Source of the DNA: a virus
IMG/VR virus record: IMGVR_UViG_3300046680_000280
Span: 1 to 33,333 of that record
Direction: 5' to 3' (one strand)
DNA: 33,333 nucleotides
Shown in pieces: positions 1-33,333 of the stretch (position 1 is its first letter; each line of letters starts with the position of its first letter). The position numbers and the translations under genes are program-made. Under the pieces are notes generated by a model, which had not been told where the DNA came from, ran no database searches, and saw nothing but the letters and a program-made list of their open reading frames with translations.

Positions 1-106
1 GACCCTCGCAGGGCCGATCACCCGCGCGCCGCGCACGGCAACTCCGAGAGCCGCGGCTGCGAATCCCTACACAGCGAGGACGGCGATGAATGTGAGGGCA
101 GGCTAA
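1..106 (+). CDS. C-terminal end of virion protein (partial)
   Basis: This is the last part of the reading frame that appears whole at 32574-33308. It ends with TAA at 104-106, which overlaps the ATG of the next gene by one base (TAATG). It encodes the Ala/Arg/Thr-rich tail of that protein. The mismatch at base 5 changes a valine codon (right-hand copy) to leucine here. It should be counted once, as the same gene as the copy at the right end. Confidence 0.85.
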   Translation, partial: TLAGPITRAPRTATPRAAAANPYTARTAMNVRAG

Positions 107-131
107 TGGCATCGTTGTATCCAGGAGCACC
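1..131. repeat. Terminal direct repeat, left copy
   Basis: Bases 1-131 repeat at 33203-33333. The only difference is position 5 (C) against 33207 (G), so 126 bases from 6 to 131 are identical. The repeat covers the end of one virion gene and the start of the next in the same frame. It therefore reads as the overlap left when a circular or circularly permuted genome is written as a line, giving a unit of about 33,202 bp. A genuine short terminal redundancy is the alternative; the internal coding position argues against a dedicated end sequence. Confidence 0.93.
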
Positions 132-1797
132 GCGCGGAGTCACCCGGTCGGCGGTCTCGAGGGGGCCGCTGCCCGCTTATCTGCAGCCGTCGCCCACCTA
201 CAAGCCGGTCGGCCCCTATAACCCGGCTGCGTACGCGCGGGGTGGCGCACCGGCGCAGGTGTCGAGCGGGACGCAGTGGCTTGGCCGCACGTTTCCGGCC
301 GGCCGGACTGCGACGCTGCCCGGCCCGTCGCAGACCGCGACGCAGGTCGCGAACCAGCAGGTCAACCAGCAGATCGACCCGCAGCTTGCGGCGCAGAACA
401 CGTTCAACACCGGCCAGAACACGGCGATCAAGCAGTTCGCGAACGCGCTCCTGGGGAAGCTGCAGCCGATCGCCGGCCAGGTCGGTCAGGACTACAACCA
501 GGCGATCCAGCAGACCGGGGCGCTCTCCAACCAGGCCGCGAAGTACCTCTCGGCCGCGAACCCGACCGGCGAGGTTGCGAACCTGCTCAGCTCGGAGAAC
601 GCGCCACCCGAGCAGCAAGCGCAGCTGAAGGCGCAACTCGGGCAGACGTTCGGCGGCGGCGCCGGGGTGCTCGCGTTCACCCAGGGGACGGTTCCGGGCA
701 GCCAGCTCGCCACTGACAAGGCCGCGGCTCAGTCGCAGGCGCGCTCCTACCCGCTGATCGCGGCGTTGAAAGGGCAGCAGGACTTGGCTTCGGCGTTGCA
801 GACGCAGAGCGTGGCGCGGCAGAAGCTCGAGGCGACGAAGCCGGCGCTGTATCAGAAGGCGATGCAGAACATCCGCACCAACCAGGCGGCGAGGGCGAAG
901 CTCGGCGAGACGCAGTACGAGTTCTCGGTCAAGGAAGGCGACAAGGCCGCGGCCGCTGCGGTGCCGAAGGTCTACTCGTCGGGCGGCGGGCTCTACAGCG
1001 TCGACCCGAAGACCCAGGCGGTCACCGAGATCCACGCGCCCGCGGCGAAGGCGGGCTCGGCGCCGAAGGTCGACGTCAACTTCTCACGCTCGACCGGGAA
1101 GCTCACCTACATCGGCGCGGACGGTCAGCCTCATTACTTCGTGGACGCGAAGGGGGGCAAGATCCCGTACGTTCCTCCGTCGAGCGGCTCGACGCCGACG
1201 AAGCATTACACGACAGTTTCGGACGCGACCGGCACGTATGTCGTGGACGAAGACACCGGCGCGAGGCGCCGTGTCGGTGGTCCGTCCTCGTCGTTCACGC
1301 CGTCTGCCCCGTCGCCGCACTACACGACCGTGTCGGACAGGACGGGTACGTATGTCGTGAACGAGGACACGGGCGCCAAGCGGCGGGTCGCTGGGCCTTC
1401 TTCGTCGTTCTCGCCGAGCAATAGCGCGCCGACGGTGCATAACGGCCGCCAGTGGGACCCGGTGTCCAAGACGTGGGTGAGAGCGCCGGGGCTGCCCGCG
1501 ACAACGAGCACGAGCGCGCATCCCCTGACCGCGCCCGAGTCCGTCAAGTTCACCAAGAGCGCGACACAGATCGCCACGAACGCCAGGAACGGCGGTACCG
1601 ACCCCAAGGGCAACTACACCCCGCCGGTCGGCCGCGACCAGGCGATCCAGGAGATGAAGATCGCCGGGCTGCTCCGCGATCCGCGGACCGCGAAGATCGC
1701 GATGCAGGCGATCAATCAGGCGTACGGGCCAGCGCCGCGGACGAGCACGGTCAAGTCCGGCGGGTCGTTCGGCGTCCAGGCAACCGCGACGCCGTGA
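106..1797 (+). CDS. Probable internal or tail-associated virion protein with tandem repeat
   Basis: This 563-residue protein has no family I recognise. It starts with ATG behind an AGGGCAGG-type ribosome site and overlaps the upstream stop by one base. Residues 1-60 are rich in Pro, Tyr and Gly. Residues 75-260 are rich in Gln and Ala and look helical. Residues 367-442 hold two copies of a 38-residue unit beginning HYTTVSD and containing GTYVV(D/N)EDTGA. The C-terminus (about 500-563) is charged and helical. It lies directly downstream of the collagen-like fibre region across the junction and upstream of the 960-residue protein, so a late virion role, possibly an ejected internal protein, is inferred from position. 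The stop overlaps the next start (GTGA). Confidence 0.8.
   Translation: MASLYPGAPRGVTRSAVSRGPLPAYLQPSPTYKPVGPYNPAAYARGGAPAQVSSGTQWLGRTFPAGRTATLPGPSQTATQVANQQVNQQIDPQLAAQNTFNTGQNTAIKQFANALLGKLQPIAGQVGQDYNQAIQQTGALSNQAAKYLSAANPTGEVANLLSSENAPPEQQAQLKAQLGQTFGGGAGVLAFTQGTVPGSQLATDKAAAQSQARSYPLIAALKGQQDLASALQTQSVARQKLEATKPALYQKAMQNIRTNQAARAKLGETQYEFSVKEGDKAAAAAVPKVYSSGGGLYSVDPKTQAVTEIHAPAAKAGSAPKVDVNFSRSTGKLTYIGADGQPHYFVDAKGGKIPYVPPSSGSTPTKHYTTVSDATGTYVVDEDTGARRRVGGPSSSFTPSAPSPHYTTVSDRTGTYVVNEDTGAKRRVAGPSSSFSPSNSAPTVHNGRQWDPVSKTWVRAPGLPATTSTSAHPLTAPESVKFTKSATQIATNARNGGTDPKGNYTPPVGRDQAIQEMKIAGLLRDPRTAKIAMQAINQAYGPAPRTSTVKSGGSFGVQATATP
1204..1431 (+). repeat. Two tandem 114-bp coding repeats
   Basis: Two in-frame copies of a 114-bp unit (38 codons) lie at 1204-1317 and 1318-1431 inside the 563-residue virion protein. 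Each encodes HYTTVSD, then a GTYVV strand, an EDTGA turn, an RRV step and a Ser-rich linker. Copies differ at several third positions and a few residues, so the duplication is not recent. The pattern suggests a small repeated beta module. Confidence 0.85.
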
Positions 1798-4676
1798 GCT
1801 CCTACGACTACACCCCGCGCGGGTCGACGGGCGGGAGTGCGGCCGCGGCGAAGTCCTGGGCGCAGATCAAGGCAGGGCTCCTCGCGCCAGTGGAGGGAAT
1901 CTCCGCGGCTGCGAAGCCGACGAAGCCTCCTCCTGCGAAGACCGTGAACGTGCGCGCTCACACCCGCACCATCCCGGTGAAGCCCAAGGGAGGCTCGACC
2001 GGAGGCGGCAACATCGCTCTTGGCCCGTCGGTGACCGAGAGCACGACCTACAAGCCGCCGGCGACGACACGCACCGCCCCGGCGAAGATCGTCCCGCTCA
2101 CCCAGAGCGTCAGGCCGAGCGAAAGCTCGAACGTGAAGCGGTACAAGCCGAGCTTCCCCAAAGAGCCGGTCGCCGGCTATGACGCGGTGCAGCTGAACCC
2201 GGACGGCTCCCTGGCGAAGCAAGGGAACTATCAGCCGGGTGTCCGCATGGTTCGGCGCCCCTACTACACGAACACGAACACGCTGGCCAAGCGCGCCGGG
2301 CCTGCCGGGCAGGAGAGCACACAGTGGAACGCGGCGACGGTCGCGCAGGCCAAGCAGATGCAGGTCGCGAACTACGGCGGGCCGGCGGGTTACGCTGTTC
2401 GCTCGCTGATCCCCGGGGGGCTCGACCAGAGCGGCACGACAAGCGTCGCCAAGGCTCTCGTGCGGGGAGCCGAGGCGGCTTCGACGGTACTTCCGGGCGG
2501 CGGGGTCGGCGAGGCGGCCGGGATCTTGACCGGGCTCAGGGGGCTCAAGGTTCTCCGGGGTGCGAAGGACGTAGCCGAGGCTGCGCCTGCGGCCCATGCC
2601 ATCGTGCGCGGTTACCGAGGCGGCGAAGTAGGTTCCGATGTCGCGCATCTCGCCGAGGATCCGCGGTACGCAGGCGCCTTCGTCAAGAGCGACGCCGAGG
2701 TTAAGGCTCTCGAGGTTCACGCGACGAACCCGCTGGTGATCCGTACGAAGGATCAGATGCGCACGGTCTGGCAGACGGCCACCAGACATGACCCGTCGCT
2801 ACAACCCAGGGAAGCCGTGGCGAAGTGGGCGCGGGCGCAGGGCCACGACGTCGTTGTCTTGGAGCACGGCGTCATGCCCCCGTCTGTCCGAGGGCAAACG
2901 AGCACGGCTGAGGCGCTCGTTCTTCATCCAGAGCGGCTGAAGCCGGCAACGCAAGCGCCCACGTCCCTACTCCCCGCTCCCGCCCCGACACCCGCCGAGC
3001 AGCTTCGCACCGGTCTCAAGGGTGCCCGCGGCATTCGTGCCAAGCAGGAGGCTGGCTACTCCGCTCCGCGCGGTTCGCGTGAGGCGCAGGCACAGGCGAT
3101 CTACAGCAACCCATCCCTCTCTGTCGCGGAGCGTGAGCACGCCGCCAACGCTGTGCTCAGAGGCGCACTCCCGAAGGTCTACTTCGATGGCTTCAAGGAT
3201 CTGACCCCTGGCGTGTTGGAGCAGATGAAGACGATCGTGATGGAGCATCCCACGCTGAGGGGCTACGACAAGAAAACTCTGACCAAGGCGTTGGATGACG
3301 CGCACGCCGGCGAGGTGCCGACGAACAGCGAACTCGACAAGCTCGAGACGGTGTTCGGGAAGGCGACCAGGGACAGCTTCGCGAAGTACGCGACGGACGC
3401 GAGCAAGTGGAAGGACGCCTTCTACGAGGTCGGCAACATCCCCCGCTCCTTGATGTCGTCCGTCGATATCTCCGGTGTGGGACGGCAGGGGCTGGGGGCG
3501 CTGGTCAACCATCCGATCATCACCGGTCGCAACCTGCCCGGCATGATCCGGGCCGCGAACCACGAGGCGTTCTACCAGCAGGGCATGAAGAACCTTGCGG
3601 CACGGCCGAACGCCGGCAAGTACGAGATGGGGAAGCTGGCGGTCACGAATCTCGAGGGCATCAGTAACAGGGAGGAGGCGTTCGCGTCGAACCTGGCCGA
3701 GAAACTGACGGGCCTCGGGAAACGCGAACGCTCCCCGGTGCGCTGGTCGGCTCGCGCCTACACCTACATGCTCGCGCACACGCGCGCGGACATCTACGAC
3801 CACTACGACAGGCTGTTCGCGAACGCCGGCCAGGACGTTCACGATCCGAAGTTCATCAAGGGTCTCTCGACGATGATCAACAGCCTCACCGGGCGCGGCT
3901 TCTCGCTGGGCGGCCTCGCGCACGGTACATCGGGGAAGGCGCTGAACACGGTGCTGTTCTCGCCGAAGTTGATGGCATCCCGCTTCGACCTGCTCAACCC
4001 CGTCTACTACGCGAAGATGCCGAAGGGGCTGCGGCCGCTCGCGTTGCGTCACAGCCTGGCGACAGTCGGGGCGATCGCCTCGACGCTCGAGCTGGCACGG
4101 CTGTCCGGGCTGCACGTCGGCCTCGACCCGCGCAGCGCCGACTTCGCGAAGATCAAGGTCGGCAACACCCGCATCGACCTCGCCGCTGGCTACCAGCAGA
4201 CGGTCAGGATGCTCTACCAGGTCGCCGTCGGGCAGTCGAAATCTTCCGCGACCGGTCAGGTAGTCAACCTTCGCAGCGGCAAGTACGGGCAGAAGTCAGT
4301 CACCGATGTGCTGACGAACTTCTTCGAGAACAAGGAGTCGCCGCTCGCGAGTATCACCTCCGACTACGTGCTCAGGGGCGGCAAGAACACGATCGGGCAG
4401 AAGATGACGCCGGGAAGGCTGGCGGGGAACTACCTCACACCGCTCCTCGGGCAGGATCTGTTCGACATCTACCGCGAGAAGCACGGCGGCGTCAACGGTC
4501 TGGCGTGGGCGCTCGGCGCTGCTCCTCTCGGCGCGGTTGGGGTCGGGTTGCAGACCTACGGCCCGCCCAAGCCGAAGCAGACCGGCGGCTCGAGCTCCGG
4601 CGGAAGCTCCTACGACTACACCCCAAGCGGGTCGGGTGGCGGCAGCTCCTACGACTACACGCCGTCCACTCCGTAG
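1794..4676 (+). CDS. Large polyvalent-type virion protein with probable ADP-ribosyltransferase-like domain
   Basis: The GTG start at 1794 overlaps the upstream stop (GTGA) and gives 960 residues; an in-frame ATG further left lies inside the previous gene. In order: SYDYTP near residue 4; a low-complexity Pro/Thr/Lys linker to about 180; hydrophobic helices at 200-265; a segment at 270-384 with RGYRGG, AEDPRYAGAF, ATNPLV and TAEALVLHPERLK, which resembles phage ADP-ribosyltransferase-like (ART-PolyVal) domains; then a helical region at 540-890 (NIPRSLM, RPNAGKY, NREEAF, FSPKLMASRF) that resembles the LPD38 region of large polyvalent proteins. The C-terminus carries two more SYDYTP motifs in Gly/Ser linkers. 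Such proteins are thought to be injected with phage DNA. Domain names rest on remembered motifs. The transferase call is moderate; the virion role is inferred from late-operon position. Confidence 0.75.
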   Translation: MSSYDYTPRGSTGGSAAAAKSWAQIKAGLLAPVEGISAAAKPTKPPPAKTVNVRAHTRTIPVKPKGGSTGGGNIALGPSVTESTTYKPPATTRTAPAKIVPLTQSVRPSESSNVKRYKPSFPKEPVAGYDAVQLNPDGSLAKQGNYQPGVRMVRRPYYTNTNTLAKRAGPAGQESTQWNAATVAQAKQMQVANYGGPAGYAVRSLIPGGLDQSGTTSVAKALVRGAEAASTVLPGGGVGEAAGILTGLRGLKVLRGAKDVAEAAPAAHAIVRGYRGGEVGSDVAHLAEDPRYAGAFVKSDAEVKALEVHATNPLVIRTKDQMRTVWQTATRHDPSLQPREAVAKWARAQGHDVVVLEHGVMPPSVRGQTSTAEALVLHPERLKPATQAPTSLLPAPAPTPAEQLRTGLKGARGIRAKQEAGYSAPRGSREAQAQAIYSNPSLSVAEREHAANAVLRGALPKVYFDGFKDLTPGVLEQMKTIVMEHPTLRGYDKKTLTKALDDAHAGEVPTNSELDKLETVFGKATRDSFAKYATDASKWKDAFYEVGNIPRSLMSSVDISGVGRQGLGALVNHPIITGRNLPGMIRAANHEAFYQQGMKNLAARPNAGKYEMGKLAVTNLEGISNREEAFASNLAEKLTGLGKRERSPVRWSARAYTYMLAHTRADIYDHYDRLFANAGQDVHDPKFIKGLSTMINSLTGRGFSLGGLAHGTSGKALNTVLFSPKLMASRFDLLNPVYYAKMPKGLRPLALRHSLATVGAIASTLELARLSGLHVGLDPRSADFAKIKVGNTRIDLAAGYQQTVRMLYQVAVGQSKSSATGQVVNLRSGKYGQKSVTDVLTNFFENKESPLASITSDYVLRGGKNTIGQKMTPGRLAGNYLTPLLGQDLFDIYREKHGGVNGLAWALGAAPLGAVGVGLQTYGPPKPKQTGGSSSGGSSYDYTPSGSGGGSSYDYTPSTP
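1797..1826 (+). repeat. 30-bp direct repeat at the 5' edge of the 960-residue gene
   Basis: This copy begins at the last base of the upstream gene's stop and encodes SSYDYTPRGS. It matches 4605-4634, near the 3' end of the same gene, at 28 of 30 bases (the first 20 are identical). A third, 20-bp copy with one difference lies at 4644-4663. The gene is thus bracketed by a short repeat, which would allow exchange or loss of the gene by homologous annealing. Confidence 0.85.
4605..4663 (+). repeat. Two copies of the YDYTP-encoding repeat at the 3' edge
   Basis: Copies at 4605-4634 and 4644-4663 each encode SSYDYTP, separated by Gly/Ser codons. They repeat the sequence at the 5' edge of the gene. 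The neighbouring leftward gene ends in the related YDFTP peptide twice, encoded from the other strand, so the motif is present in inverted orientation immediately downstream. Confidence 0.85.
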
Positions 4677-4980: not shown

Positions 4981-5679
4981 ATGCCCATCACGCTGACGCG
5001 GACGCTGACCATGACGAACCCGCTGATGCACGGCGCCGACGTCACCGCGGTGCAGAAGCTCCTCACCAGCAAAGGCTTCCCCTGCAAGGTCGACGGCTAC
5101 TTCGGCACCGAGACCGGGAACGCCTGCGTCAGCGCGAAAACACGGCTGCTGTACCCGAAGGGGAAGCGCACCCCCACCTGCGGCAAGTACCTCGTCGAGA
5201 AGCTCGAAGGGCACGCCGACTTCAAGCCGCTACCGCCCGCGTCGACCCGGCAGCGGTACGTGGCGGTGCTGCGCCAGTTCTACAGCGAAGGGTCGAACTG
5301 GGACTACGCGCAAGTACGGCCGATCCCGCACCCCGGACAGAAGGGCCGCGTGAAGACCGACTGCTCCGGCGGGGTCACCTACGCCGCCGAGACGGCGAAG
5401 GTCCCCGACCCGAACGGGCGCGGCTTCGACGGACTCGGGTACACCGGCACGCTCTTGGACTCGAAGATCTGCAAGCGCGTCACCGTCCTCCAGGCCAGGC
5501 CGGGTGACCTGATCGTGTACGGCGCCTACCCCGGCCACCATGTCGTCGCGGTGCTCGAGGCCGGATCGGACCCGCTCGTCTGGTCTCATGGCGGGCAGGG
5601 CGATCCGAAGATCATGCGCCACTCCGAGCAGGCCCGGTATCAGCCGCCCGGTATCGCTGTGCTTTCGTTCCTGCCGTGA
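4981..5679 (+). CDS. Endolysin: peptidoglycan-binding domain plus NlpC/P60 peptidase
   Basis: The 232-residue protein starts with ATG seven to nine bases after a GGGGGAAG ribosome site. Residues 10-75 form a PG_binding_1-type domain (LMHGADVTAVQKLL, then DGYFGTET). Residues 90-230 look like an NlpC/P60 cysteine peptidase: the nucleophile is Cys128 in TDCSGG and the histidine is 186 or 187 in PGHHVVAV, with RPGDLIVY just before it as usual in the family. The enzyme would cut peptide stems of host peptidoglycan for release. No signal peptide is seen, so export should depend on a holin, and small membrane proteins flank it on both sides. Confidence 0.9.
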   Translation: MPITLTRTLTMTNPLMHGADVTAVQKLLTSKGFPCKVDGYFGTETGNACVSAKTRLLYPKGKRTPTCGKYLVEKLEGHADFKPLPPASTRQRYVAVLRQFYSEGSNWDYAQVRPIPHPGQKGRVKTDCSGGVTYAAETAKVPDPNGRGFDGLGYTGTLLDSKICKRVTVLQARPGDLIVYGAYPGHHVVAVLEAGSDPLVWSHGGQGDPKIMRHSEQARYQPPGIAVLSFLP

Positions 5680-6392: not shown

Positions 6393-6421
6393 ACGGTAAT
6401 GACATGTCGGGATGGCCGCAA
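6393..6421 (-). promoter_or_regulatory. Leftward repressor promoter
   Basis: On the minus strand a -35 TTGCGG (6421-6416) and a -10 TACCGT (6398-6393) are 17 bases apart. The operator GACATGTC (6401-6408) sits in the spacer, so binding there should block this promoter. Transcription would start at or next to GTG 6386. Confidence 0.5.
6401..6408. promoter_or_regulatory. Operator half-region OL, GACATGTC
   Basis: A perfect 8-bp palindrome, preceded by AAT and followed by GGG. The identical octamer at 6445-6452 lies 44 bp away centre to centre, close to four helical turns, so two dimers could sit on the same DNA face. Confidence 0.6.
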
Positions 6422-6442
6422 TGGCGAGAGTGGCAGTCTTAT

Positions 6443-6471
6443 TTGACATGTCGTCCGATACGTGGCACACT
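6443..6471 (+). promoter_or_regulatory. Rightward early promoter
   Basis: A consensus -35 TTGACA (6443-6448), a 17-base spacer and a -10 CACACT (6466-6471) preceded by TGG give an extended -10 promoter. The second operator overlaps the -35 hexamer, so repressor binding should shut off the early operon. The start point would fall near 6478. Confidence 0.65.
6445..6452. promoter_or_regulatory. Operator OR, GACATGTC
   Basis: This is the second copy of the palindromic octamer, lying within the -35 element of the rightward promoter. It is identical to 6401-6408. Confidence 0.6.
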
Positions 6472-6492
6472 CGTCACCCCATGGAGATGACA

Positions 6493-6789
6493 ATGAAGTT
6501 TTCGGGCGCCAAGCTACGCGCTCTTCGCAACGCTGCCGGCCTGACTCAGGCCGAGCTGGCGCACCGCGCGCACGTTCGGGAGCGCCAGATCATCCGCTGG
6601 GAGAACGATCAGAACGTGCCGCGAACACCGGCTGTCGCGGTGCTCGCCTCGGTGTTCGGCGAGCCGCTGACGAGCTTCTTCACCGAGGGCGCGGACGAGA
6701 CCGAGGACGACGAGGAGTCTGACCCAGTGGCCGTACTGGTCGCAGCGATTCGGGATCTTGTGCGCGCCGAGATCAGGAAGGCCGCGTGA
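6493..6789 (+). CDS. Cro-like XRE family regulator
   Basis: From ATG 6493 (GGAG six bases upstream) the protein is 98 residues; ATG codons at 6481 and 6487 are in frame but lack a ribosome site. Residues 1-60 are a canonical XRE helix-turn-helix (LRALRNAAGLTQAELA, RERQIIRWENDQNVP, LASVFGEPL). An acidic linker (DETEDDEESD) and a C-terminal helix that could dimerise follow. It is the first gene of the rightward early operon and diverges from the leftward repressor. A Cro-type role is inferred from this place. The stop overlaps the next start. Confidence 0.85.
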   Translation: MKFSGAKLRALRNAAGLTQAELAHRAHVRERQIIRWENDQNVPRTPAVAVLASVFGEPLTSFFTEGADETEDDEESDPVAVLVAAIRDLVRAEIRKAA

Positions 6790-7646
6790 GCGAGATCGAA
6801 GTCATCCCCGTCGGTCAGCTCACGCTTTTCGACCTTGCAACGATCGCGAACGAGGAGCACGCGCTCGCGCGGCAGGCGTTCGTCTCGACGCTCGAGCATG
6901 CACAGCGCGCGGGCGAAGCGCTTATCTCGGCGAAGGCCCAGGTACAGCACGGCGACTGGCTGGATTGGCTCGAGGCGAACTTCGATGGATCCGAGCGCAT
7001 GGCCCAGCGATACATGAGCATCGCCTCAAATCCGACACGCGTGTCGGATTTGGAGGAGCCGACGTTGCGAAAGGCGCTCGAGGCGATCTTCGGCAGGGAC
7101 GAACAAGAGCGACCGACGATAGAGCGGCCACCACCCCCCGCGGGCACCTACGACCTCGTCTATGCCGATCCGCCGTGGCGGTACGAGGCGCCCGGCGGCG
7201 AGACACCTGAACTCCGCGCGGTCGAGCGGCATTACCCGACGATGACTGTCGAGGAGATCGCGACGCTCCCAGTGCCGGCCGCGCCCGACGCTGCCTGCTT
7301 CCTCTGGGCAACGAATCCACTGCTGCGGGAGGGGCTCGAGGTGCTCGACGCGTGGGGGTTCACGTACCGCACCAACCTTGCGTGGGTGAAGGACCGGATC
7401 GGGATGGGCTACTGGGTCCGCGGCCAGCACGAACTGCTGCTGATCGGGCGACGCGGTAGCTTCGGACCACCCGCCGAAAGTCTGCGGCCGCCGTCGGTGC
7501 TCCACGCGCCCCGGCTTGAGCACTCCGCGAAGCCCGAGGAGCTGTACGACCTACTCGAGTCGCTGTACCCGAACGCGACCCGGATCGAGATGTTCGCTCG
7601 CGCACAACGGCCCGGGTGGGATTCGTGGGGAGCGCTCGCGGCGTGA
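6786..7646 (+). CDS. DUF3102-like domain fused to MT-A70 adenine methyltransferase
   Basis: This 286-residue protein starts with GTG overlapping the upstream stop. Residues 20-100 resemble DUF3102, a helical domain common in phage and ParB-like proteins (EEHALA, AGEALISAK, DWLDWLEANF, RMAQRYM). Residues 118-280 are an MT-A70 type SAM-dependent adenine methylase. Asp128 to Trp131 form the catalytic DPPW motif; FLWATN and a C-terminal PEELYDLLESLYP motif also fit. It probably makes N6-methyladenine in phage DNA, as protection or regulation. The linker region contains a 26-bp perfect palindrome. Confidence 0.88.
   Translation: MSEIEVIPVGQLTLFDLATIANEEHALARQAFVSTLEHAQRAGEALISAKAQVQHGDWLDWLEANFDGSERMAQRYMSIASNPTRVSDLEEPTLRKALEAIFGRDEQERPTIERPPPPAGTYDLVYADPPWRYEAPGGETPELRAVERHYPTMTVEEIATLPVPAAPDAACFLWATNPLLREGLEVLDAWGFTYRTNLAWVKDRIGMGYWVRGQHELLLIGRRGSFGPPAESLRPPSVLHAPRLEHSAKPEELYDLLESLYPNATRIEMFARAQRPGWDSWGALAA
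7027..7052. promoter_or_regulatory. 26-bp perfect palindrome inside the methylase gene
   Basis: The 26 bases from 7027 to 7052 equal their own reverse complement, with the centre ACGCGT and arms starting CAAATCC. They encode residues 81-89 (SNPTRVSDL), between the DUF3102-like and methylase domains. The peptide resembles a conserved step of DUF3102 proteins, but perfect symmetry over 26 bases needs matching codon choices. It may be a protein-binding site. Confidence 0.7.
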
Positions 7647-9348: not shown

Positions 9349-10403
9349 GCATCCTCGAGCAGCTGTTCCCGAGCGAGGCGCCCGCGCTCGCGTGGCCCGC
9401 CGGGCTCCCCGACCATCTGTCGCCGTCGTCGCTGAAGACCTGGATGCGCTGCAGGGAGCAGTGGCGCCAGGTGTATCTGCTTGGCAAGCGCCAGCGCCCC
9501 GCTGCCGCGATGATCTGGGGGAGCGCGCACAACTTCGCGCTCGTCGAGCAGAACTTCGCGCAGAAGATCGGGACGGGCGAGGACCTCTCGGTCGGCGACG
9601 TCGAGCTCGCGTTCGCGGAAGGGTTCGACCAGCGCGTCGACCGCGAGGACGTCGACTGGAAGACCGACAAGCCCGCGGAGATCAAGGACCGCGGGGTGAA
9701 GCTCGCGGCTGCCTACCACCAGCAGGTGTCCGCCTCGGTGTACCCGCTCACGGTCGAGGAGTCGTTCAGCATCGATGTCCCCGGTGTCCCCGTGCCGGTC
9801 GTGGGACGGATGGACGTGACCGAGGAGACGCGCACGATCGACCTGAAGACCGGCGGGAAGCGTGAGATGAACGCCGACAACGTCTTCCAGGGGCGCGTCT
9901 ACCAGCTCGCGCGCCCGGTGGCGATGGAGTTCCACCTTGCGACGAAGACGAAGGTGCCGGGGATCTACACGCCGCCGGAGTACCCGGAGTTCGGGTTCGC
10001 GTACTCGGAGGTCGAGCAGGCACGAACCCGAACGGTGCTCGCGCTGCTCGCCGCCGACATCGCCTCCACGTACGCGCAGTTCGGCCCCGATCAGACGTGG
10101 CCGGGCGCGTTCACGTACGGGTGGGCGTGCTCGTACTGTGGGTTCAAGCCGACGTGCGCGTACTGGCCCAGCGAGACGCCGACGTTCGGCGACACGCTCG
10201 CCGGCGCCACCACCAGGCCCGAGGACACGCTCGAAGCCGAGCGACTCACCCTGACCCGCACCCTCTTGGACATCGGCGACAAGCGCGACACGTTGCCGAC
10301 CGTGGTCGCGGCGATCGACGCGAACCTTAAGTCGCGTCCATTGGGCGAGCATGTCGCCTGGCTCAGGGCGCAGCTCGAGCGCGCATCGGAGGTGATCGCG
10401 TGA
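9345..10403 (+). CDS. RecB/Cas4-like PD-(D/E)XK exonuclease with iron-sulfur cysteines
   Basis: This 352-residue protein starts with GTG 9345. It has the RecB-type nuclease motifs: SPSSLKTWMRC (Cys36), WGSAHNF (His62), GRMD (Asp157), TIDLKTG (Asp166, Lys168) and QGRVYQLA (Gln182). Cys262, Cys265 and Cys271 follow. One early and three late cysteines are the layout of the 4Fe-4S cluster in Cas4 and AddB nucleases. It probably resects double-strand ends to give the single strands that Erf anneals. Its stop overlaps the integrase start. The cluster is inferred from cysteine spacing. Confidence 0.88.
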   Translation: MSILEQLFPSEAPALAWPAGLPDHLSPSSLKTWMRCREQWRQVYLLGKRQRPAAAMIWGSAHNFALVEQNFAQKIGTGEDLSVGDVELAFAEGFDQRVDREDVDWKTDKPAEIKDRGVKLAAAYHQQVSASVYPLTVEESFSIDVPGVPVPVVGRMDVTEETRTIDLKTGGKREMNADNVFQGRVYQLARPVAMEFHLATKTKVPGIYTPPEYPEFGFAYSEVEQARTRTVLALLAADIASTYAQFGPDQTWPGAFTYGWACSYCGFKPTCAYWPSETPTFGDTLAGATTRPEDTLEAERLTLTRTLLDIGDKRDTLPTVVAAIDANLKSRPLGEHVAWLRAQLERASEVIA

Positions 10404-11293
10404 CCGTCTATGCTCTCGACCCACTGAAGGACCTCCGCCATCGGGAGACGGCCGCAGCGCGCGAACTCGCGGACTTCCTCAAGTACCTGGAGCTGGGCAA
10501 CAAGGCCGCGCGCACACTCGACGCCTACGAGAGGACCTACGCCGCCCTCACGCTCGCGTTCCCCGGGAAGCGGTTCGACGAGTTCACCGACGGCGACCTC
10601 GCCCAGGTGCTCGCCCGCTACCCCGCGAAGAGCAGGCATCAGAACAAGTCGCACCTGAACTCGTGGTTCAAGTGGGGCGTGAAGACCAGGCGGATCACCT
10701 CGAACCCCGTCGACCTCTTGCCGGAGATCCGCTACCGGCCCTCCCGCGACTACGACCTGTTCAGCGAGGCCGAAGCCGACGCGGTCTGCGCGCTGCCAGC
10801 CCCGGACGGGCAGCTCGCCACCCTGATGTTCTGGCTCGGCTTGCGCCTGGCCGAAGCTCGTGGGCTGACGGGGAAGCGGTTCGACTTCGAGCGCCGCCAG
10901 GTGCTGGTCGTCGACGGCGCCAAGGGCGGCAAGAGCCGGCGGGTGCCGATGATCGGCCGTGTCGAGACCGCCGCCTCCGATCTGCTCGTCCTCGAGGGGA
11001 TCGGCCCCGACGACTACATGTGGTACAGCCGCGGCGACAAGCACGACCGCCAGGTATCCGACCAGCGCTTCTACGACTGGTGGCACGGCGCGCTCGACGA
11101 GGCCGGTGTCCGTTACCGCAAGCCGCACCTGGTTCGGCACACGTTCGCCTCACGCTTGCGCGACATGGGGGTGCCGATGGAGGACCTGCAGCAGATCCTC
11201 GGGCACGACTCGATCCGCACGACCGTCGACGTGTACGCGCACTCGAGCTCGGAGAGGATCGGCGACCGTCTGCGCGAGATCGTGGAGGGCTAA
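10400..11293 (+). CDS. int: Tyrosine recombinase, phage integrase
   Basis: GTG 10400 gives 297 residues. An N-terminal SAM-like core-binding domain (about 20-105) precedes the catalytic domain. All active-site residues are visible: Arg149 (FWLGLRLAEARGL), Lys178 (GGKSRRVP), His243 with Arg246 (KPHLVRHTFAS), His269 (ILGHDSIRTT) and Tyr279 (DVYAH). The N-terminal arm-binding part is short. It should integrate the circular genome into the host chromosome, and with the repressor pair it marks the phage as temperate. The gene ends the recombination block, and a candidate attP lies directly downstream. Confidence 0.94.
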   Translation: MTVYALDPLKDLRHRETAAARELADFLKYLELGNKAARTLDAYERTYAALTLAFPGKRFDEFTDGDLAQVLARYPAKSRHQNKSHLNSWFKWGVKTRRITSNPVDLLPEIRYRPSRDYDLFSEAEADAVCALPAPDGQLATLMFWLGLRLAEARGLTGKRFDFERRQVLVVDGAKGGKSRRVPMIGRVETAASDLLVLEGIGPDDYMWYSRGDKHDRQVSDQRFYDWWHGALDEAGVRYRKPHLVRHTFASRLRDMGVPMEDLQQILGHDSIRTTVDVYAHSSSERIGDRLREIVEG

Positions 11294-16523: not shown

Positions 16524-17020
16524 GCGAGGCACTGGAGCTGAGGGGGCATCATGCGTTGCCGTCCCCTGCCGATTGGGAGGATTTCGAGCGAAGGATCCTG
16601 GAAGGCGAAGACCCGCAGAAGGCGGCGAACGCGCGCAGGCTTTCGCTCTCGAACTACCGCAGGGCAGACCACCAGCGGCAACGGGAGTTGCTGGCCCGCT
16701 CGAGGGAGGCGCGTGCCGACGAGGCCGACCGCCGCCTCGAGGACTGGGTAACCAAGGCCGAGGCCAGTGACACGCTGAAGGTGTACTTCCATCGCTACCA
16801 CGCGAACATGGCGGGGAGGGGCGTGGAGAAGCTCGAGCTGGAGGTGCAATCGGATGTCGGCGACTCGCTCGAGAGGTTCGCCGCTGCTGTCGCCGCTGCA
16901 GCTGCTCGCCGAGCTGCCGACGGAGGAGCGGGACCGCCTGACGGGACGGTTGTCGAGCGAGCAGAAGGCGGCGCTCGCCTGGCGCTGGCGGGGCTGGCAG
17001 GCGCGGCCGAACCAGGTTGA
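16520..17020 (+). CDS. Terminase small subunit-like protein
   Basis: This 166-residue protein starts at GTG 16520. Residues 15-60 are a likely helix-turn-helix (DWEDFERRILEG, DPQKAANARRLSLSNYRRAD). A long charged helix follows, and the C-terminus is Ala/Gly-rich. Position directly upstream of the large subunit and the HTH/helix layout suit TerS, which recognises the packaging site. The last 167 bases overlap the large-subunit gene in another frame. The C-terminal low-complexity stretch lies wholly in the overlap, so its composition is set by the other gene. Confidence 0.65.
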   Translation: MSEALELRGHHALPSPADWEDFERRILEGEDPQKAANARRLSLSNYRRADHQRQRELLARSREARADEADRRLEDWVTKAEASDTLKVYFHRYHANMAGRGVEKLELEVQSDVGDSLERFAAAVAAAAARRAADGGAGPPDGTVVERAEGGARLALAGLAGAAEPG

Positions 17021-18389
17021 GCCGGAAGGCGAGTGGCGCTACTGGCTCGTGATGGCGGGCCGCGGTTTCGGGAAGACGAGGGTGGGCGCGGAGTGGGTTC
17101 GGGAGAAGGTCCGCCACCACAAGCGGGTGGCGTTGTTGGGGAAGGACGCCGGCGACATGCGGGCGGTGATGATCGAAGGCGAGTCGGGGATTCTCGCGGT
17201 CTGTCCGAGGCACGAGCGCCCTGAGTACCAGGCCTCCAAGCGGGTGTTGAAGTGGCCGAACGGCGCGATCTCGGAGTTCCGCACCGGCGAGGACCCCGAG
17301 GGCGTCAGAGGCTTGCAGTGCGAAGCGCTGTGGGCCGACGAGCTCGCCGCCTGGCAGTACCCGGCCGAGACCTGGGACATGGCGATGCTGGGACTGCGGC
17401 TCGGGCCGGATCCGAGGGCGTGCATCACGACGACGCCGAAGCCGATCCGGCTGATCCGGGACTTGGTCAGGGACGAGCATTGCGTCGTCACGCATGGCAC
17501 CACCTACGACAACCTGAGCAACCTGGCGCCGGCGTTCGCCTCGGCGATCATCCGCCGTTACGAGGGCACGAGGCTCGGCAGGCAGGAGCTCGACGCCGAG
17601 CTGCTCGAGGACGAGGGGCTCGCCTACCGGTTCAGCGAGCACGCCCATGTGATCCACGGCGCCTGGGAGCCGCCGGCGTCGTTCGAGCGGTTCGAGAGCT
17701 GCGACTACGGTTCGAACAACCCGACGGCGTGGCTTGCCTGGTGTGTCGACTACGACGGCAACCTCGTCGTCTACGACGAGTTCTACGAGCCGGGTCTTCC
17801 CAGTGAGATCGCGCCGAGGATCTTGGCGTTGCGGAAGTGGTGGCGCTCGAGCGTCTGCTGGGCCGACCCGAGCCTGTGGATCGGGAAGGGGATCACGAAC
17901 AAGTTCGGCCGTGAGGCGAACTCGGCGGACGAGTTCCACGACTCGGGCGTCTCGATCGTCCGGGCGAACAACGACCGCCGTGCCGGCTACCTGCGCTTGT
18001 CCGAGCTCTTGCGGATGGAGGAGGCCAGGCGGTACCCGTCGTGGCACCACCGGGCCGGGGAGTCGCCGGCGCCGCGGATGTTCGTCAGCGATCGCTGCAC
18101 GAACCTGATCGAGCAGCTCCGGGACGCGCCGTTGGAGACGAGCGAGCCGGGCCCGACGTCGGGGCCGCACCCGTTGGAGGCGGTGGCGGTGAAGTGGGAG
18201 GGCGCTCACGGGCACGCTCATGCCGCTTGCCGCTACGGCGCGATGAGCAGGCCGGGCGCGAGCTCGGAGCCGGAGGACACGTTCGAGAACGACCCGGTCG
18301 CCGCCGAGCGCTGGCTCAGGGCGGAGGCGCTGAAGAAGCGCGAGCGACTCATCGAGGCGCAGGACGGCCGTCCCGCCTACACGATCTGA
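16854..18389 (+). CDS. terL: Terminase large subunit
   Basis: This 511-residue protein has an N-terminal ATPase with Walker A MAGRGFGKT (Gly69-Thr75), Walker B ALWADE (Asp162-Glu163) and the coupling motif ITTTPKP (191-197). A C-terminal RNase H-like nuclease follows with acids Asp284 (CDYGSN), Asp308/Glu309 (VVYDEFY) and Asp338 (WADPS). It cuts concatemers and pumps DNA into the capsid through the portal. The N-terminal LLAELPTEERDRL segment is typical and lies inside the overlap with the small subunit gene, so the overlap is real. Confidence 0.93.
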   Translation: MSATRSRGSPLLSPLQLLAELPTEERDRLTGRLSSEQKAALAWRWRGWQARPNQVEPEGEWRYWLVMAGRGFGKTRVGAEWVREKVRHHKRVALLGKDAGDMRAVMIEGESGILAVCPRHERPEYQASKRVLKWPNGAISEFRTGEDPEGVRGLQCEALWADELAAWQYPAETWDMAMLGLRLGPDPRACITTTPKPIRLIRDLVRDEHCVVTHGTTYDNLSNLAPAFASAIIRRYEGTRLGRQELDAELLEDEGLAYRFSEHAHVIHGAWEPPASFERFESCDYGSNNPTAWLAWCVDYDGNLVVYDEFYEPGLPSEIAPRILALRKWWRSSVCWADPSLWIGKGITNKFGREANSADEFHDSGVSIVRANNDRRAGYLRLSELLRMEEARRYPSWHHRAGESPAPRMFVSDRCTNLIEQLRDAPLETSEPGPTSGPHPLEAVAVKWEGAHGHAHAACRYGAMSRPGASSEPEDTFENDPVAAERWLRAEALKKRERLIEAQDGRPAYTI

Positions 18390-20309: not shown

Positions 20310-20363
20310 ACTTGGGCATCGCTGTCAGGGTGATGCCTGGCTTCGGTGTGTCAATCCGCATGG

Positions 20364-20383
20364 ACGCTCGCTGAGGCGGGCGT
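20364..20383 (+). terminator. Hairpin upstream of the portal gene
   Basis: ACGCTCGC (20364-20371) and GCGGGCGT (20376-20383) pair over eight positions with one G-U and a TGAG loop. No U-tract follows. It lies 20 bases before the portal ATG and may moderate read-through or protect the portal message. Confidence 0.4.
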
Positions 20384-20402
20384 TCGTGCGAGTGGAGGCC
20401 CT

Positions 20403-29305: not shown

Positions 29306-29997
29306 TGGCGTTCCCCTCGACGTTCAACGACATTCAGCAGGCGGTGATCGAGAAGGCGACGCTCGACCCTGTGCTCGACCTACCGAAGGTGAAGGACTGG
29401 ATCAATCAGGTGTACTTCCAGTCGGCCGTCGAGATCGAAGCGATCCCCGCCACGACGACGATCACCCTCGTCGCGGGAACGTCGACCTACACGCTCGCGG
29501 CGACGATCGCACGGATCCGGCAGATGGTCGTGAAGCCGTTCAACGGCACGCAGTTCAACGCGCCGCTGATCCTGACCACGTTGGACGAGATCCTGCAGCG
29601 CCGCCAGATGGGGCAGGACGCCTCGACCATAGGGCCGTACTCGACGCATTACACGCTGGTCGGGATCAGCGACCTCGAGCTGTGGCCGACCCCGGCCGCC
29701 GCCGACGTGATCACCGCCTACACCGTCGCCTACCCGACCGCACTGTCGAACAACACTGATCTGCCGGTGTTCGAGGAGCCGTACGCCTCGAAGATCCTCG
29801 AGTACGGCGCCCTCGCCGAGGCCGGTGACTTCAAGGGCGACCCGGCGACCGGGCAGTGGGCGGCCGACTACACCGACTGGATGGGCCGCTACAAGGTGCA
29901 CCTGCAACGGAAGCGGGGTGTAATCCCCGGCCAGTTCCACCAGTGGGGCGACGGCGACCCGCTGACGAGCTCGGGGTCGAGCGCGTATGGCTACTAG
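29305..29997 (+). CDS. Head-tail adaptor protein
   Basis: The 230-residue protein has an N-terminal helix pair (TFNDIQQAVIEKATLD, VKDWINQVYFQSAVEIEAI), a Thr-rich beta strand (TTITLVAGTSTYTLA), IRQMVVKPFNG, ELWPTPAAADVITAYTVAYP and a late helical LEYGALAEAGDF. This is the layout of adaptor proteins that dock under the portal in podoviruses. It overlaps the nozzle gene by 11 bases. Assigned by order and motif pattern. Confidence 0.75.
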   Translation: MAFPSTFNDIQQAVIEKATLDPVLDLPKVKDWINQVYFQSAVEIEAIPATTTITLVAGTSTYTLAATIARIRQMVVKPFNGTQFNAPLILTTLDEILQRRQMGQDASTIGPYSTHYTLVGISDLELWPTPAAADVITAYTVAYPTALSNNTDLPVFEEPYASKILEYGALAEAGDFKGDPATGQWAADYTDWMGRYKVHLQRKRGVIPGQFHQWGDGDPLTSSGSSAYGY

Positions 29998-31813
29998 CGC
30001 CGGGGTCAACGCCTCCTCCGGCAGGCGCGGCTACCTCCGCTACCTGTACGGCAACCACTTCTGGATCCCCGAGCTCTTGGCGGACTTCACTCGCGGGATC
30101 GTGCGCGACACGACCCGGGACGCGATGCCCACCAATGCTGTCTACGACTCCGTCGACTTCCTGCTCGACCGTCCCGGGGTTGCGTACAAGCGGGGCGGTT
30201 CGGCGTTCCAGCACACCGCGCCCGGCGGGATGGCCTCGCTGATCGGTGTCGCGGCGCCCGAGTATCCTGGCAACCCTCGCGTGGTCGCGTTCGCCTCCGA
30301 CGGAGGCTCGGGCACGTTCGCTTACGACGTCACCACCGGCACACCCGGCTCGAGCCTGAACTGCAACGGGGCGCTCCTGCTGGAGAACCCGCCGTTGCAC
30401 AAGGACAAGCTGATCGTCTGCGACGGGAAGGGCGCGATCGGCTTGACCCCGCACGCGGTACAGAAGCTCTACCTCTCGTCCGGCACCCTGGCTGTCGCCG
30501 ACCTTGGCGGTGCGCCGCCGGTCGCCAGGTACTCGTGCGTCCACCTCTCCCACCTGGTGCTCGCGAACTCGGTCGCGAACCCGAACCGGGTCTGGTTCAG
30601 CCCGATCCCGAACATCGAAGGCAACACGGTCGCGATCACCTCGGCCTCTTCCACGAGCCACACGTTCACCATCCCCGGCGACCTCACCACCAGCCTCCCG
30701 GTCGGCTCGTCGTTCACCGTCACTGGCTCCACGTCGAACAACGGCACCTACACCGTGCTCGCCTCGAGCTGGGCCGCCGGCGCGACCACTGTCACCGTCG
30801 CCTCGGTGCCGTCGTCGACCGGGACGATGGGGAACCTGAATACCGGCTGGGACACCGCGAACGCCTGGTTCGACGTGCCGCACGAGATCATGGGTCTCGC
30901 TTCCCTGCAGGGGGTGCTGATCATCTTCTGCCGCGGCGAGTCGTGGCGGATCCTCGGCGACGTCCCGCCCGGCCAGACCGGCGCGAACATGCAGCGCGAG
31001 CCGCTCGCGGCGGTCGGGTGCGTCGACGCGCGCTCGATCGTGAAGATGAACGGGCTCGTCTACTGGGCGCACGAGTCCGGGATGTACTACACCAACGGGG
31101 CGGCACCGGCGTCGATCACGCACCTGCCGAACGCGACCGGGATCGGCAACCTGTGGGCCGACGCCCTGTACGGGTACTCGCCTCAGCTGAACTCGGTTGT
31201 CTGCGCCGGCGTCTACCTGAACAAGCACCTGTTCGTCACCGTCAGGCACGCCGCCACTGATCCGCAGGCGGGGGCGCGCTACCAGTTCCTCTACTACCAG
31301 CCGACTGGCTCCTGGGTGCGGCTCGCCGACGGTGTCACCGCCGACATGTACGCGACCGCGTTCGCACCCTCCGGTGAGATCTACGCCTCTTGCGGCGACA
31401 CCTCGGATCCGGTGCGGGCGTTGAAGTTGTCGGGGCTGTTCAAGCCGACCGGGTCGAACAAGACGGACGCGAACGGTGACGTGGTCGCGCCGACGGTCAC
31501 GTTCCGCACCCTGACGAACACCCCGTCGTTGACGGCGTGGGGACGGGCACGGTTGACCTACGACATGCGTGACGCCGCAAGCGACAACCCGACCTTGGCG
31601 GTGGCGGCGGCGAAGGGGATGGAGGCGACGAGCTTCGCGACAGCCTCGACGCTCGTCGAGACACTGGACACGGTACGGCAGCGGTTCTCGGTCGCGTGCG
31701 ACAGCCAGGCGATGACGATCCGGCTGACGCAGTCGAACGCCTCCGCGATGACGGAGCTGCACGCGCTCGAGGTGGAGTCGCGGCCGTACCCGCGTGCCGC
31801 CGAGGGCGTCTAA
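29987..31813 (+). CDS. Tail nozzle-like beta-propeller protein with inserted domain
   Basis: This 608-residue protein has a nozzle/tail-hub character: DSVDFLLDRPGVAYKRGG near 54-71, repeated beta blades (KLIVCDGKGAIGL, GLASLQGVLIIFCRGESWRI, VKMNGLVYWAHESGMYYTNG, FLYYQPTGSWVRLADG) and a C-terminal sandwich. A Thr/Ser-rich segment at about 213-282 (TSASSTSHTFTIPGD, NNGTYTVLAS) interrupts the blades like an inserted Ig-type domain. It follows the adaptor, and no tape-measure gene exists, so a short podovirus tail is implied. Confidence 0.75.
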   Translation: MATSAGVNASSGRRGYLRYLYGNHFWIPELLADFTRGIVRDTTRDAMPTNAVYDSVDFLLDRPGVAYKRGGSAFQHTAPGGMASLIGVAAPEYPGNPRVVAFASDGGSGTFAYDVTTGTPGSSLNCNGALLLENPPLHKDKLIVCDGKGAIGLTPHAVQKLYLSSGTLAVADLGGAPPVARYSCVHLSHLVLANSVANPNRVWFSPIPNIEGNTVAITSASSTSHTFTIPGDLTTSLPVGSSFTVTGSTSNNGTYTVLASSWAAGATTVTVASVPSSTGTMGNLNTGWDTANAWFDVPHEIMGLASLQGVLIIFCRGESWRILGDVPPGQTGANMQREPLAAVGCVDARSIVKMNGLVYWAHESGMYYTNGAAPASITHLPNATGIGNLWADALYGYSPQLNSVVCAGVYLNKHLFVTVRHAATDPQAGARYQFLYYQPTGSWVRLADGVTADMYATAFAPSGEIYASCGDTSDPVRALKLSGLFKPTGSNKTDANGDVVAPTVTFRTLTNTPSLTAWGRARLTYDMRDAASDNPTLAVAAAKGMEATSFATASTLVETLDTVRQRFSVACDSQAMTIRLTQSNASAMTELHALEVESRPYPRAAEGV

Positions 31814-32560
31814 GTGGCGAAGATCGACTCGATCTACGACCTCTCCGAGAAGGCGCTCGTCGAGATCAAGTCGTGGCTGGAGCCGTGGTTCCTTACCCGC
31901 GCCCGTGGGGGAACCGGGGGCGGTGTCGGCCCCGCGGGTCCCGCAGGCCCGCAAGGTCCCCCGGGTGCGGGCACCGGGATCTTCTGGCCCGCTGCCGACC
32001 AGGCCCACACGACCAACGACACCACCTCATGGGCGAACACCCCCGACGGCGTCGGCCACTACGACGCGCTCGCGCTCGACGGCAACAACACGATCGTCAT
32101 GTTCGCCGGCGGCTATCAGGGTGACTCGTACCCGTCGATGCTCGTTGTCGACTACACGAACCTCACCGACACGATGGGGATCTACTGGGACGACGGCACC
32201 CACGACCCCTATTTCGGGAACGGCGCCGCGATCATCGCCACCGCCTCGGGCACCCCGGGGAACATGGGGTTCGCTCTCCGCGCGCTAGGACAGTTCATCC
32301 TCATCTCCGGGGTCAGCAGCAACGGGATCCCGTTCGTGGAGACGCAGCTCGCGGGACTTCTGCTCGGGCCTGTGAACACCGCGGTAGGAGGCCCCGGGCA
32401 GGGAGTGTGTCATTACGCCGGCAAGAGCGCGCCTCTTATCGGCGGCAATGTCGGTGACAAGTACTGGCGCTCGGACGGCACCGTCGGCTCGAGCACGCTT
32501 CTTTACACCTGCACCGTCGCGGGTGCGGCCGGATCGGCGACGTGGGTGGGGATCCTATGA
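31814..32560 (+). CDS. Tail fibre with short collagen-like segment
   Basis: GTG 31814 directly follows the nozzle stop, giving 248 residues. An N-terminal helix (SEKALVEIKSWLEPWFL) is followed by a short Gly-x-y run (VGPAGPAGPQGPPGAG, about 38-53). A beta-rich C-terminal domain with DGNNTIVMFAGGYQGD and FALRALGQFILIS follows, ending in a small SATWVGIL knob. Gly-x-y segments trimerise phage fibres. A role in host binding is inferred. Confidence 0.75.
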   Translation: MAKIDSIYDLSEKALVEIKSWLEPWFLTRARGGTGGGVGPAGPAGPQGPPGAGTGIFWPAADQAHTTNDTTSWANTPDGVGHYDALALDGNNTIVMFAGGYQGDSYPSMLVVDYTNLTDTMGIYWDDGTHDPYFGNGAAIIATASGTPGNMGFALRALGQFILISGVSSNGIPFVETQLAGLLLGPVNTAVGGPGQGVCHYAGKSAPLIGGNVGDKYWRSDGTVGSSTLLYTCTVAGAAGSATWVGIL

Positions 32561-32573
32561 AGGGATGGCCTGG

Positions 32574-33308
32574 ATGGCAGTGAACCCGTACAGGTACCAG
32601 GCGGCCAAGAACACCACCGGCTACGGTGGCGCGCCGGTCGCGAGCGCGCTTGCGTCGAACCCGTTCAACACCGACCCCGGTTACCTCGCTGCCCTCGCTT
32701 CCGAGCAGACCGGGTCGCAGCAAGCGGACGCGGCGTTGAAGGCGGCGCAGGAGCAGGCGATCGTCCAGTTCGGCGACCCCTCCCTGGCCCAGGCCGCGGG
32801 GATCCACGTGAACCCGTTGACCGCAGCGGCGGCGCAGCAGAACACGCAGTCCGGGAACTCGACGGTGGCCGGATATCAGCGCACCCGTGACCAGAACCAG
32901 CAGACGATCCTGAGCTCGCTGGCGGCGCACGGGATGCTCGACTCGGGGCAGCTCGGGTACGCGACCGGGCAGAACCAGCAGAAGTACGGGCGTGACGTGT
33001 ACGGCGGCTTGCAGACGGCGCTCGCCGGTTTGAACACCGCTCAGGCAACAGACGTGTTGACGAAACAAGGCTTGCACTCCGATGTCGTCACGGCGCTCGG
33101 GAACGCCTATGACGCCCGTGTGAAGGCGAGCGGTGGGGCGAACGCTGCGGCGAACACCGCTGCGACCCAGCCGGTGACGGCGGCGCTCGGCGCGGACGGC
33201 CCGACCGTCGCAGGGCCGATCACCCGCGCGCCGCGCACGGCAACTCCGAGAGCCGCGGCTGCGAATCCCTACACAGCGAGGACGGCGATGAATGTGAGGG
33301 CAGGCTAA
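32574..33308 (+). CDS. Virion protein, probable internal/tail-associated
   Basis: From ATG 32574 (AAGGG about ten bases upstream; ATG 32565 is closer to it and less likely) the protein has 244 residues. It begins NPYRYQAAKN, continues with DPGYLAALASEQTGSQQADAAL and Gln-rich helices (RTRDQNQQTILSSLAAHGMLDSGQ), and ends Ala/Arg-rich. The helical, Gln-rich middle with a GMLDSG step is common in podovirus virion proteins of unknown role. Its last 105 bases recur at the left end of the window. Confidence 0.78.
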   Translation: MAVNPYRYQAAKNTTGYGGAPVASALASNPFNTDPGYLAALASEQTGSQQADAALKAAQEQAIVQFGDPSLAQAAGIHVNPLTAAAAQQNTQSGNSTVAGYQRTRDQNQQTILSSLAAHGMLDSGQLGYATGQNQQKYGRDVYGGLQTALAGLNTAQATDVLTKQGLHSDVVTALGNAYDARVKASGGANAAANTAATQPVTAALGADGPTVAGPITRAPRTATPRAAAANPYTARTAMNVRAG

Positions 33309-33333
33309 TGGCATCGTTGTATCCAGGAGCACC
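33203..33333. repeat. Terminal direct repeat, right copy
   Basis: This matches 1-131 except at 33207. See the left copy. It holds the last 106 bases of one virion gene and the first 26 of the next. Confidence 0.93.
33308..33333 (+). CDS. Start of the 563-residue virion gene (partial)
   Basis: ATG 33308 is the duplicate of ATG 106 and is cut by the window end after eight codons (MASLYPGA). It represents the same gene as 106-1797 once the circle is closed. Confidence 0.85.

What the first reader, a model, noticed from the sequence alone, without database searches (positions are those of the whole stretch)
1794..4676. 960-residue virion protein with an ADP-ribosyltransferase-like domain and an LPD38-like region
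Seen: RGYRGG, AEDPRYAGAF, ATNPLV and TAEALVLHPERLK in that order at residues 270-384, then NIPRSLM...RPNAGKY...NREEAF...FSPKLMASRF at 540-730. Known: phage polyvalent proteins combine ART-type toxin domains with conserved LPD regions and are thought to enter the cell with the DNA. Inference: this podovirus delivers an ADP-ribosylating effector at infection. Candidate active residues are the RG at 272-273, Tyr292 and Glu373. The segment is short and lacks clear spacing between first motifs, so the call is moderate.
Basis: partly seen in the sequence, partly recalled or inferred. Interest (0 to 1): 0.75.

Follow-up and report, generated by a model that had tools for sequence, protein, structure and literature searches.

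The report
Phage ejection protein with optional ART-like cassette
This gene encodes the largest of three proteins that this phage probably shoots into its host ahead of its DNA, and it carries a removable 130-residue piece that looks like a divergent ADP-ribosyltransferase, an enzyme type that phages use to reprogram host proteins.

Summary
It is best read as the large ejection protein (T7/P22 gp16 position) of a temperate, probably short-tailed phage: gene order is tail protein, fibre, 286-aa, 563-aa, this 960-aa protein, endolysin. Its C-terminal module (residues 400-924) recurs in 40 viral contigs. It matches no Pfam (LPD38 included) or PHROG family, but its predicted fold matches phage proteins named 'large polyvalent protein associated domain'. 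Relatives put different enzymes in front of it: transglycosylase, Pfam ART-PolyVal, zincin, ParB, HATPase. In the window the slot holds residues ~268-399. Three close relatives have both flanks and lack exactly this piece, and its GC3 is lower, so it is a mobile plug-in. Its single-sequence model is low-confidence (pLDDT 57), but the best structural matches are AcrIF11 (an ART) and the RES toxin MbcT. Activity is therefore open. Unexpected: these proteins carry phage-private short motifs repeated at their termini (20/35 N-termini versus 10/175 internal controls), SSYDYTP here.

The parts
1794..4676 (+). Whole CDS, 960 aa: large ejection / polyvalent protein
   Evidence: GTG start conserved in relatives
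1794..2594 (+). N-terminal part, residues 1-267 (Pro/Ser/Gly-rich, then a conserved helical Gly-rich stretch), lineage-specific
   Evidence: 57-81% identical over its conserved half in L068/G024, L066, L067
2595..2990 (+). ART-like cassette, residues 268-399
   Evidence: absent from three close relatives with both flanks conserved; GC3 0.74 vs 0.87 in flanks, Fisher p=1.6e-4; model best matches AcrIF11 and MbcT
2613..2624 (+). YRGG, residues 274-277: candidate first ART motif, Arg275
   Evidence: aligned by eye with YRGG of L014 and YHGT of L003/L013
2649..2654 (+). Leu286-Ala287: strand-2 catalytic position (Tyr in L003 LYSTDP), not conserved here
   Evidence: manual alignment of segments printed
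2910..2912 (+). Glu373 in AEALVLHP: candidate catalytic acid
   Evidence: aligned with Glu in L014 EELVVLNP
2991..4565 (+). C-terminal module, residues 400-924, mostly helical; contains IPRSLM, TGRG, FSPKLMASR, SADFAKIKVGNTR
   Evidence: 40 viral contigs, alignments A2/A5, AF2 model pLDDT mostly 75-95
1797..1817 (+). N-terminal tag SSYDYTP, copy 1
4605..4625 (+). C-terminal tag SSYDYTP, copy 2
4644..4664 (+). C-terminal tag SSYDYTP, copy 3
106..1797 (+). 563-aa protein, medium member of the ejection triad (gp15/gp20 position)
   Evidence: gene order; same order and size class in relatives
32448..33308 (+). 286-aa protein, small member of the ejection triad (gp14/gp7 position); contiguous with 106-1797 across the circle's join
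29987..31813 (+). 608-aa tail protein, P22 gp10-like ('stabilization') position
   Evidence: PHROG internal virion / tail appendage hits; tblastn to the L001 gene annotated phage stabilization protein
4981..5679 (+). Endolysin (peptidoglycan-binding plus NlpC/P60-like), next gene downstream

Best explanation
The protein is the large ejection protein of a short-tailed temperate phage. The C-terminal module (400-924) is the conserved machine part that is packaged in the head and enters or spans the host envelope during DNA delivery. The stretch just in front of it is a cargo slot in which different phages of this family carry different enzymes. In this phage the slot holds a recently acquired, optional ART-fold domain (268-399), delivered with the genome to ADP-ribosylate a host (perhaps defence) protein, in the manner of T4 Alt or AcrIF11. 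Shown by computation: conserved module, cargo variability, clean presence/absence of the cassette, different codon composition, gene position. Inferred: packaging, injection, ART fold (weak model, convergent matches), catalytic activity, and host target.
For: C-module in 40 viral contigs with variable N-terminal enzymes: SLT 6e-7 and ART-PolyVal 1.6e-4 in L003, ART-PolyVal 7e-6 in L013, SLT 3e-14 in L007, LPD23 and DUF6782 in L041, HATPase in L042, ParB_N in L020, HELGH(H) in L014 and L001. ART lies directly before the module in L003/L008 and, by motif only, L014, as in the window. Small-medium-large triad then lysis genes in L003, L004, L007, L020, L027, fully or partly. Cassette missing in G024/L068, L066 and L067 with flanks intact. 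GC3 shift p=1.6e-4. Single-sequence model: top VIA matches 6kyf (AcrIF11, an ART; PMC12421852) Z 4.3 over 92 residues and 6fkg MbcT Z 3.4; ParT, RES-Xre and tankyrase 2 also listed. BFVD matches of the module include 'large polyvalent protein associated domain' proteins at probability 0.97-1.0.
Against: The window's segment itself matches no ART family by sequence. Its model is low-confidence (pLDDT 57, first 45 residues under 50) and Foldseek alone gives no E under 0.3; Z values under 8 can be common arrangements. The strand-2 catalytic residue is missing. The link to T7/P22 gp16 is positional: no sequence or fold match to solved ejection proteins was seen. No virion proteomics.
Confidence: 0.6

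Rival explanations
1. Degenerate ART: the cassette has an ART fold but is no longer, or never was, a transferase; it acts by binding a host protein or NAD+, or is decaying.
For: Strand-2 catalytic position is Leu286/Ala287 and strand 1 has Arg in place of the His of the polyvalent ART clade (H-Y-D in PMC5512222; segments). Absent from close relatives, so dispensable.
Against: Glu373 and the YRGG motif are kept and shared with L014; the frame is intact; R-type first motifs occur in active ARTs of the R-S-E class (PMC5512222).
Confidence: 0.3
2. Not an ART: the 130-residue insertion is some other alpha/beta domain or spacer, and the motif resemblance is chance.
For: No profile hit in any library; low-confidence model; Foldseek E-values not significant.
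Against: The two best VIA matches are ART-superfamily folds aligned over nearly the whole segment, and further ARTs are on the short list; the same slot holds Pfam-recognised ARTs in relatives.
Confidence: 0.25
3. The whole protein is a tail or tape-measure protein of a long-tailed phage, not an ejected protein.
For: L001 is labelled Siphoviridae in GenBank; a weak tape-measure hit in one relative.
Against: No tail-tube or assembly genes seen among the scanned genes; the upstream gene is P22 gp10-like; triad order and lysis neighbour; enzymes in the slot include SLT, as in T7 gp16 (PMC8954989).
Confidence: 0.06

Closest known systems
Polyvalent proteins of phages (PMC5512222)
   Same: Large late-gene protein joining effector enzymes (ART, zincin, SLT, ParB) to uncharacterised conserved regions; relatives here carry Pfam ART-PolyVal, LPD23, DUF6782
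   Different: The conserved C-module matches no catalogued LPD family; this protein carries a single, divergent ART-like cassette
T7/P22 gp16-class ejection proteins (PMC8954989)
   Same: Third and largest gene of a small-medium-large triad after the tail genes; N-terminal enzyme is swappable (SLT in T7 and in L003/L007)
   Different: No sequence or fold similarity detected; cargo goes beyond peptidoglycan hydrolase
AcrIF11 (PDB 6KYF), a phage ART that modifies Csy1
   Same: Best structural match of the cassette model (Z 4.3, 92 residues)
   Different: AcrIF11 is a free protein made in the cell with His/Tyr/Asp-type catalytic residues; here Arg/Leu/Glu, fused to a virion protein
T4 Alt
   Same: Proposed logic: ART packaged in the head and injected
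   Different: Alt is a stand-alone R-S-E ART; no sequence similarity was found or tested directly

Membership tests
Pfam ART-PolyVal (PF18760) | Profile match | tested here: not met
   No match in the window at E<=10; met at E 1e-7 and 5e-6 (below gathering score) in relatives L003 and L013
ART superfamily | Split beta-sheet ART fold | tested here: inconclusive
   Single-sequence model pLDDT 57; top VIA matches AcrIF11 Z 4.3 and MbcT Z 3.4; Foldseek E 0.36
ART-PolyVal (Tox-ART-HYD2 clade) | His in strand 1, Tyr in strand 2, Asp in strand 5 (PMC5512222) | tested here: not met
   Manual alignment gives Arg275, Leu286, Glu373 (segments)
LPD38 (PF18857) | Profile match | tested here: not met
   0 of 19 records at E<=10; 0 of 34 aligned members; no positive control rang
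Polyvalent proteins | Several effector domains in one polypeptide in a late-gene context | tested here: inconclusive
   One candidate effector plus the module here; relatives have two or more (L003 SLT+ART, L014 zincin+ART-like)
gp16-class ejection proteins | Third, largest gene of the ejection triad | tested here: met
gp16-class ejection proteins | Present in the virion and ejected | not testable with these tools
   needs proteomics and an injection assay
gp16-class ejection proteins | Fold or sequence similarity to T7/P22 gp16 | tested here: inconclusive
   none found, but absence is not decisive

The most novel reading that the evidence does not exclude
The large ejection protein of this phage family is a general delivery chassis: a conserved, so far uncatalogued C-terminal ejection module with exchangeable enzyme cargo, whose extreme termini carry phage-private repeated short motifs (SSYDYTP here; IDFRP, PPGFIPD, INWDKY and others elsewhere) that act as a packaging or assembly address tag recognised by a partner in the same virion.
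Probability: 0.35. Interest if true: 0.8.

Novelty: new variant of a known kind. Interest (0 to 1): 0.55.

Why it matters
It gives a natural present/absent pair: closely related phages whose ejection protein differs by one ART-like cassette. That makes the question of what injected phage enzymes do at the start of infection directly testable. It also defines a conserved ejection module not in Pfam or PHROGs, and a terminal-motif pattern that, if it is a packaging tag, would explain how such proteins are chosen for the head.

Tried and rejected
Sequence searches of the cassette alone against phages, plasmids, PDB sequences and viral contigs found nothing. tblastn of L003's ART against phages and plasmids found nothing. 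Genome contigs gave one fragment only. Splitting L014's ART into fragments to improve the alignment failed. The 741-residue model gave no PDB match and did not build the outer strands of the cassette. LPD38 was rejected on profile evidence, with the caveat that no positive control rang. Solved-structure searches with the C-module profile, the medium triad protein, the tail protein and the portal-like protein gave nothing. Literature searches combining ejection proteins with terminal repeat or short linear motif terms found no description of the terminal tags, which is not proof of novelty.

Full report
OBSERVATION. The window is a whole virus record of 33,333 bases. Its two ends overlap by about 125 bases with small differences at the very start (sequences printed), so it is probably a circularly permuted complete genome (inference). 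The window protein matches no Pfam or PHROG family at E<=10 and no NCBIfam family at E<=1.

GENE CONTEXT. Terminase (16854-18389), integrase (10400-11293), MCP-like (27475-28833), tail (29305-29997), a 608-aa protein with internal-virion/tail-appendage PHROG hits (29987-31813), a collagen-like protein (31814-32560), then, across the join, 286 aa, 563 aa and this 960-aa protein, then an endolysin (4981-5679). The 20346-22493 product has weak similarity to actinophage portal proteins. The 608-aa protein is similar to the gene annotated phage stabilization protein in MW202497.1. A small-medium-large set after the tail genes is the ejection triad of T7/P22-like phages, whose large member (gp16) carries an exchangeable N-terminal peptidoglycan hydrolase in T7 (PMC8954989). 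The same order recurs, fully or partly, in L003, L004, L007, L014, L020, L027 and L047.

THE C-TERMINAL MODULE. tblastn in 50,697 phage records found one relative, MW202497.1, at residues 533-851. Profile-guided scans then found 8 and 40 viral contigs. The module (residues 400-924) contains R[AS]LMASxDLSAPLRQG, TGRG, FSPRLxASR and SADF[AG]KIKxGNTR. None of 34 members matches LPD38 or any PHROG convincingly, and LPD38 is absent from 19 whole records, though no positive control rang. AlphaFold2 gives a mostly helical module at pLDDT mostly 75-95. PDB has no match. BFVD gives matches down to E 2e-24, among them proteins named large polyvalent protein associated domain-containing protein. So 'LPD38-like' is reasonable as a description but not shown as membership.

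THE CARGO SLOT. Upstream of the module, relatives differ: SLT plus ART-PolyVal (L003, near-identical L008), ART-PolyVal (L013), SLT (L007), HELGH zincin plus an ART-like YRGG...EELVVLNP segment (L014), HELGHH (L001), LPD23 plus DUF6782 (L041), HATPase (L042), ParB_N (L020), or nothing recognisable. Several of these Pfam matches are below the curated cut-offs. These are the enzymes of polyvalent proteins (PMC5512222).

THE CASSETTE. A terminase scan found close relatives. Contig IMGVR_UViG_3300020123_000159 (terminase 88% identical) encodes a 791-aa version matching window residues 9-268 and 401-953 and nothing between. Two more relatives, L066 and L067, show the same gap. GC3 of the cassette is 98/132 against 724/828 in the rest of the gene, p=1.6e-4, and 132-codon windows over it are among the lowest in the gene. 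Residues 268-399 are therefore an optional, probably horizontally acquired unit; loss in the relatives is the alternative and was not tested by a tree.

IS IT AN ART? By sequence alone this cannot be said. A single-sequence model (residues 262-392; pLDDT 57, pTM 0.56) has the order strand 268-271, strand 292-296, strand 313-316, helices 319-329 and 338-348, strands 353-357 and 372-376. Foldseek E-values are not significant. In the VIA re-alignment the first two of 31 chains over Z 2 are 6kyf (Z 4.3, rmsd 4.7, 92 aligned) and 6fkg_A MbcT (Z 3.4, rmsd 5.6, 92 aligned), with ParT, a RES-Xre toxin and tankyrase 2 further down. 6KYF is AcrIF11, an ADP-ribosyltransferase (PMC12421852). That RES toxins such as MbcT and ParT share the ART fold is my own knowledge. 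Ribokinases and other folds in the list mostly align only over model residues ~50-118. Each Z is low, but the agreement on one superfamily, together with real ARTs in the same slot of relatives, makes the ART reading the most likely (about 0.7 for fold, about 0.45 for catalysis).

CATALYTIC RESIDUES. By hand, window YRGG (274-277) aligns with YRGG of L014 and YHGT of L003/L013; HLAEDPRYAGAF (285-296) with FISRNADLALSY and LYSTDPAFASNY; AEALVLHP (372-379) with EELVVLNP (segments). This puts Arg275 at the strand-1 position, Leu286/Ala287 at strand 2 and Glu373 at strand 5. The polyvalent ART clade uses His, Tyr, Asp (PMC5512222). Tyr292 aligns with a non-catalytic residue. This alignment is manual, and automatic alignments shift the second motif by 11 residues.

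MECHANISM (inferred). Packaged with the genome, ejected as part of the triad, cassette exposed to the cytoplasm early in infection, modifying a host or defence protein. Nothing here tests packaging, injection, NAD use or target.

TERMINAL TAGS. These proteins often begin with a short motif repeated two or three times, different in each phage; some repeat it at the C-terminus. In a shuffling test 20 of 35 N-terminal 45-residue windows reach p<=0.05 (18 at <=0.01) against 10 of 175 internal windows. N- and C-termini share a motif at p<=0.05 in 7 of 35, the window best. In the window the N- and C-terminal SSYDYTP co-vary with relatives: SSYDF at both ends in L067, SSYF and GYF in L066 and L068. 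The motif was found in no other frame of the loci read. Function is unknown; a packaging or assembly address is my guess.

Noticed in passing
window 1797-1817, 4605-4625, 4644-4664; N-termini of L004, L013, L014, L020, L026, L027, L034, L036-L040, L042, L043, L047-L049: Large ejection proteins of this family carry phage-private short motifs repeated at the N-terminus and sometimes the C-terminus (20/35 vs 10/175 internal controls); in close relatives the two ends co-vary.
   Followed up: partly
window 106-1797 (563-aa protein) and L064 (560-aa protein): The medium triad protein has a ~28-aa repeat HYTTVxDxTGTYVVxEDTGAxRRV: two copies in the window, four in the G024 relative.
   Followed up: no
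window 10400-11293 and 6412-6789: Integrase (PHROG E 3e-45) and a helix-turn-helix regulator-like protein: the phage is probably temperate.
   Followed up: no
window 6786-7646: DNA methyltransferase (PHROG 359, E 4e-58) a short way downstream of the lysis genes.
   Followed up: no
L013 residues 540-720: Besides its ART-PolyVal match this relative has a second stretch YLFHTTSIDRLTSIAKNGL that looks like a KptA/PARP-type motif: possibly two ARTs in one ejection protein.
   Followed up: no
window 1-127 and ~33207-33333: The two ends of the record overlap nearly exactly, so the genome is probably complete and circularly permuted; the first ~5 bases differ.
   Followed up: partly
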